Shown here piece by piece: positions 25,771 to 46,382 of a DNA stretch of 64,000 nucleotides (position 1 is the first letter of the stretch; every line of letters begins with the position of its first letter). The stretch lies in NCBI RefSeq assembly GCF_003426815.1, contig NZ_QKYK01000005.1:186001-250000 (forward strand), in the 5' to 3' direction. The notes under the pieces were generated by a model, which ran no database searches, had not been told where the DNA came from, and was given only the letters and a program-made list of their open reading frames with translations. The stretch is from Desertimonas flava (GTDB taxonomy: Bacteria; Actinomycetota; Acidimicrobiia; Acidimicrobiales; Ilumatobacteraceae). The translations under genes and the position numbers were made by a program.

Positions 25771-26876
25771 GCCTCGCGCCGACGACAGAACACGACGAGC
25801 TCCGCAGCAGCCTCCGGCGGTTCGTCGACGACCACCTCGGCCTCGCCCACAGCCGGGCCGCGACCGACGGGGCGGCGTTCGATCGCACCACGTGGAGGCG
25901 CCTGGCCGACGACCTCGGGGTGATCGGCCTCGCCGTCCCCGACCGCTTCGGCGGCTCCGGAGCCGGCTGGCAGGAGCTGGCGATCGTGTTCGACGAGACC
26001 GGCCGCACGGTCGTGCCCGAGCCGTTGTTCGCCACGCTCGGGCTCGCTCTCCCGGTTCTGCTGGCGAGCGACGACGAGTCCGTCGGAACCTACCTGCAGG
26101 GCATCGCCAGCGGTACGACCATCGCCGCCCTTGCCTGGACCGAGCCCGGACGCGGCTGGGATCCGCGCCCTGTCGTGACCACCGGTCGCGGCGACGGGGA
26201 CGGGTGGCGCATCGACGGCGAGAAGCACCTGGTGCTCGGCGGCGACGTGGCCGACCTGCTCCTCGTCACCGTGAGCACCGATGACGGACCGAGCGTCGTG
26301 GCGGTCGATGCCGACGCTCCGGGCGTCGGGCGCCGCCCCAGGCGCACACTCGACGGCACCCGTCGCGCTGCGGACATCACGTTCACCGATGCCCAGGCGA
26401 CTCCCATCGGCACGACGGGGACCGGCGACACGATCATCGCGGAGGCGTTCGATGTCGCGGCCGTGCTGCTCGCCAATGAGATGGTGGGCGGTGCACAGGC
26501 GTGTCTCGACATGAGCGTCGCCTACGGCCATCAACGTCGCCAGTTCGGACGCCCCATCGGGTCGTTCCAGGCCGTCAAGCACAGATGTGCCGAGGCGTTC
26601 GTGGCGATCGAGGGCGCCCGAGCAGCCGCCCGTTACGGCGCATGGGCGGCCGATCACAATCCAGCGGAACTCCCCGTCGTCTCGACCGTCGCCAAGTTCG
26701 CCGCCGGTGAGGCGTACTTCAGAGCCGCCGCCGACGCGATCCAGATCCACGGCGGCATCGGCTTCACCTGGGAGCACGACGCTCACCTCTACTTCAAGCG
26801 CGCCAAGACCTCCCTGATGTATTTCGGAGAGAGCGAGCACCAGCTCGCCCACCTCGCCGACCTGCTCGCCATCTGA
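25767..26876 (+). CDS. Acyl-CoA dehydrogenase, smaller subunit of a probable heteromeric pair
   Basis: 369 residues from GTG 25767, which overlaps the preceding stop (GTGA); a longer open frame upstream is ignored for that reason. The N-terminus (DELRSSLRRFVDDHLGL), LGVIGLAVPDRFGGSGAGWQELAIVFDETGR, YGHQRRQFGRPIGSFQAVKHRCAE and the C-terminal HGGIGFTWEHDAHLYFKRAK are typical of the FadE27/FadE29-like partner subunits. The end (KTSLMYFGESEHQLAHLADLL) also matches that group. Close coupling to the larger subunit supports a heterotetramer. Confidence 0.88.
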   Translation: MSLAPTTEHDELRSSLRRFVDDHLGLAHSRAATDGAAFDRTTWRRLADDLGVIGLAVPDRFGGSGAGWQELAIVFDETGRTVVPEPLFATLGLALPVLLASDDESVGTYLQGIASGTTIAALAWTEPGRGWDPRPVVTTGRGDGDGWRIDGEKHLVLGGDVADLLLVTVSTDDGPSVVAVDADAPGVGRRPRRTLDGTRRAADITFTDAQATPIGTTGTGDTIIAEAFDVAAVLLANEMVGGAQACLDMSVAYGHQRRQFGRPIGSFQAVKHRCAEAFVAIEGARAAARYGAWAADHNPAELPVVSTVAKFAAGEAYFRAAADAIQIHGGIGFTWEHDAHLYFKRAKTSLMYFGESEHQLAHLADLLAI

Positions 26877-42041: not shown

Positions 42042-43292
42042 ATGACCGATCAGATGAACGTGTCGGCGCTCGGCGACGTGTGGCGGCGCGAGGCCGCCCA
42101 CGTCATCGGCGCGCTGCTGCGCACCCATCACGATCTCGCCGACTGCGAGGACGCGGCCCAGGAGGCGCTGGTCGCCGCCGCCCTCCAGTGGCCTCGTGAC
42201 GGTTCGCCCGACGACCCGCGGGCATGGCTGATCCGTGTCGCCCGCCGCCGCCTCGTCGACCAGTTGCGCAGCGAGTCGGCGCGCAGCCGGCGCGAGACGG
42301 CCGACGCGGTGGCCCGGCGAGTGGACGATCCGCTGGCCGAGCCACCCGACGCGACATCCGACAACGCTCTCCAGCTGATGCTGCGCTGCTGCCACCCGTC
42401 GCTGAGCCGGCCGTCGCAGGTGGCCCTCACGCTGCGATGCGTCGCCGGCCTGACCACCGACGAGATCGCCATGGCCTACCTCGTGCCCAGCGCGACGATG
42501 GGCCAGCGCCTCTCGCGGGCGCGCTCGACGTTGCGCGGCGAACCGTTCGCCCCACCCACCCCCGACGAGCTCCCCGAGCGTGTGGCGGCGGTGCTCGACG
42601 TGTGCCACCTCGTGTTCAACGAGGGCCACACCCGGACGGCGGGCGCCGAGCTCGTGGGCGTCGGGCTCGCCCAGGAGGCGATCCGGCTCACCCGCATGCT
42701 CCACGTGGCGCTGCCCGACCATGCCGAGGCCGCCGGGCTGCTGGCGCTGATGCTGCTGACGCACGCCCGCGCTGCTGCTCGCACCGATGCCGCCGGTGAT
42801 CTGGTGCCGCTGGCCGAGCAGGACCGTTTCCTGTGGGACCGCGCTGCCATCGACGAGGGCGTCGCTCTCCTCGAGCGGACGCTCGGCGGCGGCCACGTCG
42901 GTCGCTACCAGCTGCAGGCGTCGATCGCCGCCGTGCACGCCGACGCGGCGTCGGCCGAGGCGACCGACTGGCTGCAGATCAGCGTGCTCTACGGCATGCT
43001 GCAGCGCGTCGCCCCGTCGCCGGCGGTCGAGCTCAACCGGGCCGTCGCCGTCGGCATGGCGCTCGGTCCGGATCAGGGTGTTGCGATCGTCCGCCGACTC
43101 CTCGACGAGCACCCGGCGATGGCGGACCACCACCGCACCCATGCCGTGCTCGCCCACCTCCTCGAGCGGGAGGGCGACCTCGACGCCGCCCGCCACCACT
43201 ACGAGCAGGCCTCCCGCCTCACCGCCAACCTCCCCGAACAGCGCTACCTCAACCGCCGCCTCGCCCAGCTGCATTCCGGCCCCGCAGTCTGA
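42042..43292 (+). CDS. ECF-type RNA polymerase sigma factor with C-terminal extension (ECF42 group)
   Basis: 416 residues from ATG 42042; ATG 41907, overlapping the DGPF gene, is an alternative. Sigma2 covers about 10-85 (HVIGALLRTHHDLADCEDAAQEALVAAALQWPRDGSPDDPRAWLIRVARRRLVDQLR is the stretch, in part) and sigma4 about 115-170 (LTLRCVAGLTTDEIAMAYLVPSATMGQRLSRARSTLR). The remaining 240 residues form a helical TPR-like extension (DVCHLVFNEGHTR; LNRAVAVGMALGPDQGVAIVRRLLDEHP), the hallmark of ECF42. No anti-sigma gene is adjacent; in this group the extension is thought to be needed for activity. The DGPF gene upstream confirms the group. Confidence 0.87.
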   Translation: MTDQMNVSALGDVWRREAAHVIGALLRTHHDLADCEDAAQEALVAAALQWPRDGSPDDPRAWLIRVARRRLVDQLRSESARSRRETADAVARRVDDPLAEPPDATSDNALQLMLRCCHPSLSRPSQVALTLRCVAGLTTDEIAMAYLVPSATMGQRLSRARSTLRGEPFAPPTPDELPERVAAVLDVCHLVFNEGHTRTAGAELVGVGLAQEAIRLTRMLHVALPDHAEAAGLLALMLLTHARAAARTDAAGDLVPLAEQDRFLWDRAAIDEGVALLERTLGGGHVGRYQLQASIAAVHADAASAEATDWLQISVLYGMLQRVAPSPAVELNRAVAVGMALGPDQGVAIVRRLLDEHPAMADHHRTHAVLAHLLEREGDLDAARHHYEQASRLTANLPEQRYLNRRLAQLHSGPAV

Positions 43293-43306
43293 CGTCCAAG
43301 CTCACC

Positions 43307-43943
43307 GTTCTGCTGGAGCCGAAAGGCACGACAACGGGCTTCTCGCGCCACCAGAACACCGTCGTCGTTCTGCTGGAGCCAGAAGGCTGTTCCAGGGTCT
43401 GCTCGCGCCAGCAGAACCTGGTCGAACCCGCGGCGTCTCCACGACGGTCAAGTCGTTCTGCCGGAGCCGAAACACCGTGCCACGGCCTTCTCGCGCCACC
43501 AGAACGAACCGCCACCGGGCTCACCGTTCTGCCGGAGCCGAGACGCCGTGCCAGGGCTTTTCTGCGCCACCAGAACATGTCCGCTCGTTCTGCTGGAGCC
43601 GAAAGGCTGCGCCACGGGTCTTTCGCGCCAGCAGAACACCGTCGCCCCGAGTCCGTGGCGAAACCGTCAGCGAGGGGATCGTTGTGCTGGAGCAGAAAGG
43701 CTGCGCCACGGGCCCTTCGCGCCAGCAGAAGGCGTGGTCGAGCCGGGACCGGCGAGCATCGTCTGGATCATCGTGAGCAGCGGGCGGCCGATGGCGTTGG
43801 CGGCGAGCTGGCGGGAGCGGGTGGGCGTCGTGGTCGAAGTCATGGTGTCTGGGACGACCGGGCCGCCTGATCGGTTCGCCACCGACCACCTCGTTCTACT
43901 GGAGCCGAAAAGCTGCGCCACGGCGTTGTCGCGCCAGCAGAAC
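43307..43943. repeat. Array of seven 51-bp imperfect hairpin repeats
   Basis: Copies, each exactly 51 bp: 43307-43357, 43367-43417, 43455-43505, 43526-43576, 43587-43637, 43681-43731 and 43893-43943. All have the same orientation. Each begins GTTCTGCTGGAGC or a near variant and ends CGCGCCAGCAGAAC or CGCGCCACCAGAAC. The outer arms pair over about ten bases; the inner CGAAAG and CTTTCG pair in the better copies, leaving a small internal loop and a 14-base apical loop (GCTGCGCCACGGGT in copy 5). Spacers are 9, 37, 20, 10, 43 and 161 bases and unrelated. The array fills the 674 bases between the convergent ECF42 sigma and jetD genes and no credible gene lies in it. Function unknown. Confidence 0.85.
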
Positions 43944-43966
43944 AACCACCGCCGGGCCCAGCCGGC

Positions 43967-45169
43967 TCACGCGAGCAGGGTGTCGATGAGACGCTCCTCG
44001 TGGACGATCAGGCCGCGCGACGCCAACTCGTCGCGAAGCGGCGGATCCCACGGCGTGGGCGGCACGGGCCGGTCCTCCACCGGCAGGTCGACGCCGTCAG
44101 CGGCTGCGGCCTCGACCGCCGAGCGATAGTCGTCGGCGCCCATTCGCCACGGCGTGAGCCCGATGCGCTGCATGCGGGCGCAGATCGCCAGGCCCGGCGC
44201 GTCGAAGTCACCGTGATATCGAAGCTCGGCGCCCGCGGCCAGGAGCTGTTCGAGCAGCAGCCTCACGGCCGCCGACGGGTTGCCGTTGAGCGCCACCACT
44301 GCGCCCGCGGTGCGCCGTTGGGCGGCCGCCTCGACGAGACGCGGGTTCTCGACGACCAACACATCGGTGCCGGCCGGCACGACGACCGGGTGTGCGGCGA
44401 GCGCCAATCGCGAGAGGTGCACCGGCACCTCGGCGCCGGCGGCGGCCGCCACCAGTGCATGCAGCCCAGATGCCGCGACAACGGGCAGCGCCCAGGTGAG
44501 CGCTGGTGCCGAGACGAGATCGGTGTGGACGCCGGCACGCTCCCACGCCTCGGCCGAGCCCTCACCCATCGAGCGCATCGCCAACGCCCGCGTCGTCGCC
44601 GCCTCCAACCGGCTACCGGCATCGAGGGCGTGCGATGACCCGGCCACGGCCGCGGCGAGGTCGACCCGTGACGACGTGCGGCCGGCGTCGGCATCGGCGG
44701 CGATGCGATCGACCAACCGGCGCACCGTGCGCACGATCCCGGCCGCGGCGTCGGCATCGAGCCCGCTGAGCACCCCGGAGCGGATCACGCCGTCGATCCA
44801 CTCGCCGGCCCACGGTTCGGGCCACTCGGCCGCGACCGACTCACGCGCCGCACGGCGGGCGTCACGCTGCTCGGCACGGGCGGCTCGTCGGGCTGCCGGC
44901 TCGAGCGAGACCGGGTGACCGAGCGCCGACAGCGCCTCCGGGAGGTCGGCACCGACGCCGAGCTCGACCAACGCCGCCTCCAGAACGGCGAGGTTGATCG
45001 TCGCCCGTACCGGTCCGCCGAGCAGTGCCGCGAGCACCCGTCGGGCTTCCGGCGAGACCGGACCGATGCGGATGCGCCCGCGGTTGTCGATCCCCGACTG
45101 TTCGAGCCGGTGTCGCACGGTCGTCCAGACCACGCCCAGATCGTCGATCGTGAGCGACGGCGGAACCAT
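43967..45169 (-). CDS. jetD: Wadjet anti-plasmid system nuclease subunit JetD (type II; TIGR02679, DUF3323/DUF2399)
   Basis: 400 residues from ATG 45169, four bases after the jetB stop (GTG 45172 is an alternative). The C-terminal DUF2399 half carries the Toprim-like nuclease motifs: VLVVENPRLVEAA, with the catalytic Glu near residue 273, and ELRYHGDFDAPGLAIC, with DxD near 320. The N-terminal half matches DUF3323 (RIRIGPVSPEARRVLAALLGG; AEWPEPWAGEWIDGVI). In Wadjet systems JetD is the topoisomerase-VI-like nuclease that cuts circular DNA once the SMC-like complex has extruded it. All catalytic residues appear kept, so the gene looks functional. It is the last gene of the operon; the hairpin array begins 24 bases after its stop. 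Confidence 0.88.
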   Translation of the reverse strand: MVPPSLTIDDLGVVWTTVRHRLEQSGIDNRGRIRIGPVSPEARRVLAALLGGPVRATINLAVLEAALVELGVGADLPEALSALGHPVSLEPAARRAARAEQRDARRAARESVAAEWPEPWAGEWIDGVIRSGVLSGLDADAAAGIVRTVRRLVDRIAADADAGRTSSRVDLAAAVAGSSHALDAGSRLEAATTRALAMRSMGEGSAEAWERAGVHTDLVSAPALTWALPVVAASGLHALVAAAAGAEVPVHLSRLALAAHPVVVPAGTDVLVVENPRLVEAAAQRRTAGAVVALNGNPSAAVRLLLEQLLAAGAELRYHGDFDAPGLAICARMQRIGLTPWRMGADDYRSAVEAAAADGVDLPVEDRPVPPTPWDPPLRDELASRGLIVHEERLIDTLLA

Positions 45170-45173
45170 CACG

Positions 45174-46382
45174 TCAGAACAACTCGGCCTGTTGCGGCAC
45201 GGGCGGCGCGCCGTCCTTGTCGACGGCGAGGAAGCGGGCCGCCGCCGGCAGCAGCCGGACGTCGTCGACGCCGGCCTCAGCCAATCGCAGGTCGACGAGG
45301 AGCGTGAGCACGTGGCGCGAGAGCTTCTCCGGGCGCTCGACGTAGTCGTTGCGCCACCGTGACTCTCGCTCGGCCACGAGGTCGGCAATGACGGCATCGA
45401 ACCACGCGCGGGGCACGGCGTCATCGGTGGTCTCGCTCTCGCGGGCGATCGCACCGAGACGCTCGATCGTCAACAGTGCCGCGTGACCGAGCGTGCCGGT
45501 GGTGGGGAAGGGCAGGTCCGAGAGGGCGTTGGCGCCGTCGATCATCGCCACACCTTCGGCGCGCGCTTCGAGGGCCAGGTCGAACATCTCCTGCAACGAC
45601 CGCTCCTCCTCACCCAGCCGGCGGCGCAACTCGCCCCACTCCTGATCGGTGACGTCGGTGCGATACAAGACGGGCTCCTCGACGAGCCGCGCCCGCATCC
45701 ACGACCGAGTGGCGCTCCGCCGCTCCGAGCGCCTGAGCAACTCGTCGAGGTCTGCGGAGCCGGCGGTTCCCGGGACGAGGAGCAGGGCGATGCGGTCAGG
45801 CCGGACGCGTAGCACCGCGTCGGCCGTTTCGTCGGTGGCGTAGGCATCGACATGCTCGTGCAACTCAGCCGCCAAGCCGTGGTCGATCATCCACTTGATG
45901 GCCACGACGTGGGCCCGCTGTTCGATGGCGTCGCCGGGCAGCGCGACGTCGGCCTCGACGGCGGCCGAACGGACCTGGGCGACGAGGTCGCGCAGGCTGA
46001 CGATGCTGGGACCGGCCGCCGTGGCGGCCAGGGTGAGGGCGACCAGCGTGTGCTCGAGCGAGTTGAGCGGCCGGCCCGTCGCCGTGCGCAGGGGGCGCCG
46101 CTCGAGGACCACGCCCGTCTTGTAGAGCCGCGCCGTGTCGGCGTCGAGGTGCAGTCGGTAGCCGAGTCGTTGCGTGAACCAGCGACCGAGCTCCGCCTCG
46201 TGCCGGCGGATCCAGCGGAAGATGTCCGGATCGTGCTCCTCGCACGTGAGCGGGTTGCCGAGCAGGTGACGCGCCGCGGCCCGCCGCTCGATGTCTCCCT
46301 GCGGATCCTGTTCACCGCGCGGCGACGCGCTGCGCTCATCCCTCGCGATGACGTGGTCGCCGGACGACGTGTCGACGGTCAT
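45174..46382 (-). CDS. jetB: Wadjet system protein JetB (type II; TIGR02678, DUF2398)
   Basis: 402 residues, ATG overlapping the jetA stop (ATGA). Recognisable DUF2398 stretches are ERRAAARHLLGNPLTCEE, IRRHEAELGRWFTQRLGYRLHLDADTARLYKTG, LTLAATAAGPSIVSLRDLVAQVRSAA and VVAIKWMIDHGLAAELHEHVDAY. In the complex JetB is the KITE-like subunit that bridges the kleisin-like JetA and the SMC-like JetC. The family match rests on recall of these motifs, supported by the gene neighbourhood. Confidence 0.87.
   Translation of the reverse strand: MTVDTSSGDHVIARDERSASPRGEQDPQGDIERRAAARHLLGNPLTCEEHDPDIFRWIRRHEAELGRWFTQRLGYRLHLDADTARLYKTGVVLERRPLRTATGRPLNSLEHTLVALTLAATAAGPSIVSLRDLVAQVRSAAVEADVALPGDAIEQRAHVVAIKWMIDHGLAAELHEHVDAYATDETADAVLRVRPDRIALLLVPGTAGSADLDELLRRSERRSATRSWMRARLVEEPVLYRTDVTDQEWGELRRRLGEEERSLQEMFDLALEARAEGVAMIDGANALSDLPFPTTGTLGHAALLTIERLGAIARESETTDDAVPRAWFDAVIADLVAERESRWRNDYVERPEKLSRHVLTLLVDLRLAEAGVDDVRLLPAAARFLAVDKDGAPPVPQQAELF

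What the first reader, a model, noticed from the sequence alone, without database searches (positions are those of the whole stretch)
43307..43943. Seven-copy array of a 51-bp hairpin repeat directly beside a Wadjet operon
Seven copies of exactly 51 bp, same orientation, with conserved complementary ends (GTTCTGCTGG and CCAGCAGAAC) and variable inner sequence and spacers (9 to 161 bases). Compensating-looking changes occur at the ends: the GCCGG and GCTGG variants of the left arm sit with CCACC and CCAGC variants of the right. The array occupies the 674-base gap between convergent genes. It is neither CRISPR (spacers unequal, repeats diverged, no cas genes) nor standard attC. It could be a REP-type mobile element, a terminator array, or a structured element connected to Wadjet.
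Basis: partly seen in the sequence, partly recalled or inferred. Interest (0 to 1): 0.78.

Follow-up and report, generated by a model that had tools for sequence, protein, structure and literature searches.

The report
Dispersed palindromic repeats after genes
Seven copies of a 51-base palindrome next to an anti-plasmid defence operon belong to a repeat family scattered over this bacterium's genome, mostly just after the ends of ordinary genes, so the position beside the defence operon is probably coincidence.

Summary
The array is real: seven 51-bp palindromic units at 43307-43943 in the gap between two convergent genes. It is not a Wadjet feature. The genome holds 51 copies in 21 clusters on 13 contigs; 19 of 21 clusters lie 6-39 bp from a stop codon of genes of varied function. 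Neighbouring units are usually exactly 61 bp apart (21 of 30). The claimed compensating changes are absent here: the two halves of a unit vary independently. Variants with the same arms occur in 5 of 10 genomes of one related genus and at least one genome of another, where stems do covary. Neither RAYT-like gene of this genome is linked. Best reading: a lineage-specific REP-like palindrome family at gene 3' ends, spread by an unknown mechanism and probably kept as a two-half-site DNA element. Loose end: JetA2 passes cut-off in 3 of 221 family genomes, the three richest in these elements, yet none lies near the other two JetA2 genes.

The parts
43307..43357 (-). 51-bp palindromic unit 1 (strand of the family model; nearly symmetric)
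   Evidence: R2 43.7 bits
43367..43417 (-). 51-bp palindromic unit 2
   Evidence: R2 56.9 bits
43455..43505 (-). 51-bp palindromic unit 3
   Evidence: R2 59.3 bits
43526..43576 (-). 51-bp palindromic unit 4
   Evidence: R2 60 bits
43587..43637 (-). 51-bp palindromic unit 5, 61 bp after unit 4
   Evidence: R2 51.6 bits
43681..43731 (-). 51-bp palindromic unit 6 (outer arms partly degraded)
   Evidence: R2 48.5 bits
43893..43943 (-). 51-bp palindromic unit 7, 23 bp from the jetD stop
   Evidence: R2 51.1 bits
42012..43292 (+). neighbour: ECF sigma factor gene with DUF6596 (start uncertain, 41865 or 42012); its stop is 14 bp before unit 1; not part of the element
43967..45454 (-). neighbour: jetD of type II Wadjet (start uncertain); not part of the element

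Best explanation
A lineage-specific family of dispersed extragenic palindromes, REP-like in position and dispersal. Shown: each unit in this genome is 51 bp with two inverted half-sites (TCTGSTGGMGC and its complement, 25 bp apart); units sit singly or in head-to-tail groups, usually with 10-bp spacers; nearly all clusters lie just downstream of stop codons, in convergent and co-directional gaps; at least two arrays grew by duplication of the 61-bp unit; the interior differs between species. Inferred: in this genome the unit acts mainly as a double-stranded two-half-site DNA element, bound by an unknown dimeric protein at gene 3' ends, where it could act as a boundary, roadblock or supercoil-absorbing site. 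RNA base pairing is not what selection preserves here. The family was spread by an unidentified mobiliser. Wadjet is a chance neighbour.
For: Dispersal: 51 places vs 1 reversed control; 51 copies in 21 clusters; in the whole-genome profile search (best 150 of 7269 candidates scored) all 51 appear, then one 22.6-bit hit, then at most 15.6 bits. Position: 18 of 21 clusters are 6-39 bp from a called stop, and L020 is at 39 bp once its upstream gene is recognised. All 11 co-directional clusters are nearer the upstream stop than the next start. Half-sites: 7 of 816 cells differ from the majority in 16 core columns, whereas columns 7, 11, 14 and 16 differ in 27-37% of copies (counted). No lone exact arm in 270,508 bp of this genome, 81 arms inside units. 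Halves not matched to each other within this genome. Length 51 in all 51 copies; spacing 61 bp in 21 and 60 bp in 2 of 30. Identical spacers between neighbouring units in L024 and L025. Same arms and 61-bp pitch in other genomes.
Against: No DNA-binding partner was identified. No 10-bp helical periodicity in the conservation profile (p 0.75 and 0.50). Pooled over lineages, own halves are more alike than re-paired ones (0.682 vs 0.650, none of 2000 re-pairings reaching it), and the pooled g19 set has a raised covariation score (0.172 vs 0.143, 10 of 500 shuffles): the halves change together between species. That fits a dimer site whose specificity shifts, but also a hairpin. The G117 relatives show true compensatory changes and stable hairpins. 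In g19 only 10 of 23 clusters examined lie within 40 bp of a called stop and 4 are in divergent gaps (gene caller trained on this window). The core conservation is partly ascertained by the search pattern. L019 and L026 do not show the 3' placement. No functional data exist.
Confidence: 0.5

Rival explanations
1. Transcribed hairpins: terminators without a T-run, or 3'-UTR stabilisers or translation-tuning elements like E. coli REPs, read from either side in convergent pairs.
For: Placement just after stops and filling of convergent gaps. All seven window units fold on both strands at -14.7 to -30.7 kcal/mol, z -1.1 to -4.3 against shuffles. The G117 relatives keep near-perfect stems with 5 pairs changed on both sides and fold better than with permuted halves (-54.5 vs -47.3, 0 of 60 permutations). 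Halves change together between lineages. REPs within 15 nt of a stop are reported to stall ribosomes (PMC12306157, passages).
Against: In this genome pairing is no better than shuffled and folding no better than with permuted halves; the same holds for G148, G149, G153 taken singly and for the TGTGGAAGC subfamily. No T-run follows the units. No Rfam match.
Confidence: 0.3
2. Purely selfish miniature mobile palindromes: copies were inserted, or tolerated, in 3' intergenic DNA and have no host function.
For: Patchy distribution: this genome (only one of its genus seen), 5 of 10 in g19, at least one in g22. Species-specific interiors. Local duplication of whole units (L024, L025, and a repeated pair in L023). 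Little sign of shared locations with g19.
Against: Column-specific constraint and fixed length over 51 diverged copies. No linked transposase found; both RAYT-like genes have other palindromes.
Confidence: 0.3
3. A structured or regulatory element belonging to the Wadjet operon.
For: The largest cluster (7 units) is beside jetD. JetA2 passes its cut-off in only 3 of 221 family genomes (G000, G148, G149), the three richest in elements among those counted.
Against: 20 of 21 clusters are elsewhere. None in 14 kb and 19 kb around the other two JetA2 genes (the G148 gene starts 2.9 kb from its contig end). Elements also occur in G150, G153, G155 and G117, none with JetA2 above cut-off. Two of the three JetA2 genomes share a genus.
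Confidence: 0.04

Closest known systems
REP elements (GTAG- and CGTC-tagged) and BIMEs
   Same: Dispersed extragenic palindromes, mostly downstream of coding regions, in clusters, differing between species (PMC3733652, abstract and passages)
   Different: 51 bp rather than 20-40 bp; no unpaired GTAG/CGTC tag; head-to-tail units with about 10-bp spacers; not beside the RAYT-like genes. The phyla named in the passages read do not include Actinobacteria, and that word start has 0 occurrences in the paper's main text.
Computed extragenic palindromes of the RepRanger survey
   Same: Palindromes near genes; its table counts thousands in three Actinomycetota genomes, one of them Acidimicrobium (PMC12306157, passages)
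   Different: Those are pooled tool calls per genome; I saw no description of this family in the passages read
TIRs flanking RAYT-like genes ('TIRtrons', PMC3733652, passages)
   Same: Palindromes in a genome with RAYT-like genes
   Different: The palindromes beside this genome's two RAYT-like genes have a different core, GTGCCwGGCAC
TRIT, conserved terminators of Mycobacterium tuberculosis (RNIE paper not held; recalled, and cited in PMC3526491, passages)
   Same: Sequence-conserved palindromes after genes in an actinobacterium (recalled)
   Different: Sequences could not be compared here; the units lack a T-run and in this genome lack covariation

Membership tests
REP (GTAG/CGTC) | 20-40 bp palindrome | tested here: not met
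   51 bp in all 51 copies of this genome
REP (GTAG/CGTC) | unpaired GTAG or CGTC tag at one end | tested here: not met
   no conserved tetranucleotide outside the arms
REP (GTAG/CGTC) | dispersed, downstream of coding regions | tested here: met
   19 of 21 clusters 6-39 bp from a stop; weaker in g19, 10 of 23 within 40 bp
REP with RAYT | copies flank a RAYT gene | tested here: not met
   2 RAYT-like genes (NF047646 at 52 bits, below its cut-off of 80); no unit in 13 kb and 6 kb around them, only one 3-mismatch candidate with the wrong gap; other palindromes there
Intrinsic terminator | hairpin followed by a T-run | tested here: not met
   no T-rich flank; the one terminator-like site in 43200-44050 lies between unit 7 and the jetD stop, 1 found vs 0.6 expected
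Structured RNA | compensatory changes in the stem | tested here: not met
   this genome. Met in the G117 relatives; pooled lineages show some joint change
Wadjet-associated element | located at Wadjet loci | tested here: not met
   1 of 21 clusters; 0 at the 2 other JetA2 loci
CRISPR | near-identical repeats with equal spacers | tested here: not met
   copies 69-85% alike to the first over 59 nt, spacers 9-161 bp
CRISPR | adjacent cas genes | not tested
   no search for cas genes was made
Integron attC | RYYYAAC / GTTRRRY boxes (recalled) | tested here: not met
   arms read GTTCTGC and GCAGAAC

The most novel reading that the evidence does not exclude
The units are two-half-site binding sites of an unknown, fast-evolving dimeric DNA-binding protein that marks gene 3' ends as transcription or supercoiling boundaries. 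Each species has its own site variant, and the relative in G117 shows the same kind of element as a covarying hairpin. A more remote extension: the sites serve type II Wadjet as chromosomal landmarks, given that the three JetA2-bearing genomes of 221 are the three richest in them.
Probability: 0.2. Interest if true: 0.6.

Novelty: new variant of a known kind. Interest (0 to 1): 0.35.

Why it matters
It describes a defined REP-like family in an actinobacterial lineage, with a longer unit, a nearly fixed inter-unit spacer and no visible RAYT partner. Palindromes as such are already counted in Actinomycetota by a published survey (PMC12306157, passages), so the point is the anatomy, not their existence. 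Because relatives show opposite covariation behaviour, it is a small natural system for asking whether such palindromes work as DNA sites or as RNA hairpins. It also removes a tempting but unsupported link to an anti-plasmid system.

Tried and rejected
Wadjet link: rejected on location, leaving a co-occurrence in three genomes; only JetA2 was searched in the relatives. RAYT link: not found; Y1 genes also occur in genomes without elements (G018, G011). Covarying RNA stem in this genome: rejected; it holds in G117. Helical phasing of conserved columns: no signal. Uptake-sequence-like lone arms: none in 270,508 bp, about 4% of the genome. Rfam: nothing; best 18.6 bits against a cut-off of 50. Shared locations between genera: mostly none; L022/L118, next to a glyoxalase-region gene, is the only possible case I saw. 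Genome contigs pattern: 11 stretches, of which only L055 is a clear member; records near this genome may be left out there. Viral contigs: 1 stretch, no model match. Twelve family genomes with one or two pattern matches are at the level of the reversed control and were not counted as members. Weak model hits in six further genomes were not counted; the four looked at (L064, L066, L067, L070) show no palindrome array. The structured model R2 also hits palindromes of unclear relation (G420, G261, G465); that search scored only 15 candidates per genome. Literature searches in the held library; none of the listed titles and abstract openings describes this family, and the terms were limited.

Rows dropped or not examined: the 51 places are not the same set as the 51 copies (C31:30341 is in the former, at 22.6 bits, and is not counted; one C39 copy has too many mismatches for that pattern). 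Half-half and folding tests used all 51 copies of this genome and 30 of 36 g19 copies; the six of other length were left out. A5 and R2 used 26 of 51 copies of this genome and 29 of those 30, so R2 hits on them are by construction. Sites found later in g19 (L165-L184) were not scored for gene context. The strict pattern finds 10 places in G117; 7 copies were fetched and aligned, six of them matching that pattern. Other genomes of genus g22 were not searched with a G117-type model beyond those drawn.

Full report
Observation. The window holds seven same-orientation 51-bp units at 43307-43943, in the 674-bp gap between an ECF sigma-factor gene (+, ends 43292) and jetD (-, stop at 43967). The neighbour is a type II Wadjet operon: JetA2, B2, C2 and D2 all match PADLOC models. 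The claimed compensation at the arm ends is not: GCCGG sits with CCACC, whose reverse complement is GGTGG, so the pair is worse, not restored.

Genome-wide distribution. The arm pattern with up to 3 mismatches has 51 places in the 6.2-Mb genome against 1 for the reversed control. A position matrix finds 51 copies in the fetched loci; the two sets overlap but are not identical. A sequence-only profile of the whole genome (best 150 of 7269 candidates scored) shows all 51, then one 22.6-bit hit at C31, then at most 15.6 bits. The copies form 21 clusters of 1 to 7 units on 13 of 73 contigs. The Wadjet-side cluster is the largest. Successive units are 61 bp apart in 21 of 30 cases and 60 bp in 2. 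In L024 and L025 the 10-bp spacers of neighbouring units are identical, and in L023 a whole pair is repeated with its spacer, so some arrays have grown by duplication. All 51 copies are exactly 51 bp.

Position. With simple codon-based gene calls, 18 of 21 clusters lie 6-39 bp from a stop codon. L020 joins them at 39 bp after its upstream gene is recognised. L019 (apparently a divergent gap or inside an uncertain frame) and L026 (contig end, upstream of a dinB-like gene) do not. All 11 co-directional clusters are nearer the upstream stop than the next start. Among 94 gaps of at least 60 bp without an element in the same loci, 31 are divergent. Of 30 proteins from around the clusters, 28 gave a Pfam match at the E-values used; they include a ClpC-like ATPase, topoisomerase I, an SRP GTPase, D-Ala-D-Ala ligase, a MurG-like transferase, phosphofructokinase and RNase H, besides transporters, regulators and oxidoreductases. 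I see no functional theme.

Structure test. For the full 51-bp palindrome over 51 copies, 73.3% of cells pair; shuffling the 3' letters gives 75.1% and all 500 shuffles are at least as high. An orientation-free test agrees: the two halves of a unit are 69.2% alike, randomly re-paired halves 72.0%. Folding energies are no better than with permuted right halves (-25.2 vs -26.5). G148, G149 and G153 taken singly behave the same way. Pooled over lineages the picture differs: own halves are more alike than re-paired ones (0.682 vs 0.650) and the pooled g19 covariation score is raised (10 of 500 shuffles reach it), so the halves do change together between species. Within this genome the core letters TCTG, GG and GC of both arms are nearly invariant (7 of 816 cells differ), and no exact lone arm occurs in 270,508 bp while 81 lie in units. 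So both half-sites matter, but their mutual pairing is not what is kept. A 10-bp periodicity of conservation was looked for and not found.

Relatives. None of the 60 nearest genomes in the first sample had a match to the strict model. The 221 genomes of the family show the same arms with other interiors in five of ten genomes of genus g19: G148, G149, G150, G153, G155. The 61-bp pitch recurs there (G149 C885, G150 C21, G153 C148). G148 also has units with longer interiors (L117, L121), where the spacer to the next unit is still 10 bp. G148 contig C18 has the length of record NZZV01000222.1, an Acidimicrobiaceae metagenome assembly, so the lineage is probably Acidimicrobiia. In g19 the 3' placement is weaker: 10 of 23 clusters examined are within 40 bp of a called stop and 4 are in divergent gaps. 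G117, in genus g22, has at least 10 places with similar arms; seven 58-bp near-perfect palindromes were aligned. There, five stem pairs change on both sides (1 of 500 shuffles reaches this) and folding is far better than with permuted halves. A second subfamily with arms ATTCTGTGGAAGCGATCATG occurs in G148 and G149; its halves show no folding advantage.

Wadjet. JetA2 (PF09660) is above its cut-off in 3 of 221 family genomes: this one, G148 and G149. These are also the three richest in elements among those counted. Two share a genus, and no element lies in the 14 kb and 19 kb fetched around their JetA2 genes. G150, G153, G155 and G117 have elements without JetA2 above cut-off. I treat the co-occurrence as unexplained and probably accidental.

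Mobiliser. This genome has two RAYT-like Y1 genes (NF047646 at 52 bits, below its cut-off of 80). Palindromes beside them have the core GTGCCwGGCAC, unlike the 51-bp unit, and no unit lies in the 13 kb and 6 kb fetched around them, apart from one 3-mismatch candidate with the wrong gap. Genomes without elements also have such genes.

Comparison with the known. REPs are 20-40-bp extragenic palindromes, mostly downstream of genes, tagged by GTAG or CGTC; [quoted passage not shown] The present family shares position and dispersal, and fails on length, tag and transposase. A REP survey counts palindromes in three Actinomycetota, including an Acidimicrobium genome (PMC12306157, passages); I did not see this family in the passages read. 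Rfam has nothing.

Verdict. A lineage-specific REP-like palindrome family at gene 3' ends; the Wadjet neighbourhood is incidental. Mechanism: a two-half-site DNA element (about even odds), ahead of RNA hairpins and of purely selfish repeats.

Noticed in passing
G000:C72 (L136:6542-7396) and G000:C8 (L137:122-946): Two RAYT-like Y1 transposase genes with their own perfect palindromes, core GTGCCwGGCAC (on both sides of the first, beside the second); another dispersed family may exist.
   Followed up: partly
L135:3722-3902 (G148:C22): A unit whose centre holds a second long palindrome, next to a unit with a duplicated stretch in its interior.
   Followed up: no
G117, loci L191-L197: Seven near-perfect 58-bp palindromes with compensatory changes, a covarying relative of the family.
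   Followed up: partly
L166-L180 (G148, G149): A second palindrome subfamily, ATTCTGTGGAAGCGATCATG; in L179 a matching arm lies 10 bp upstream, suggesting a tandem pair with the same spacer.
   Followed up: partly
family search, JetA2: JetA2 of type II Wadjet above cut-off in only 3 of 221 family genomes, the same three richest in the repeat.
   Followed up: partly
window 26055-26116: Weak hit of the family model (16.9 bits) beginning GTTCTGCTGGCG; context not examined.
   Followed up: no
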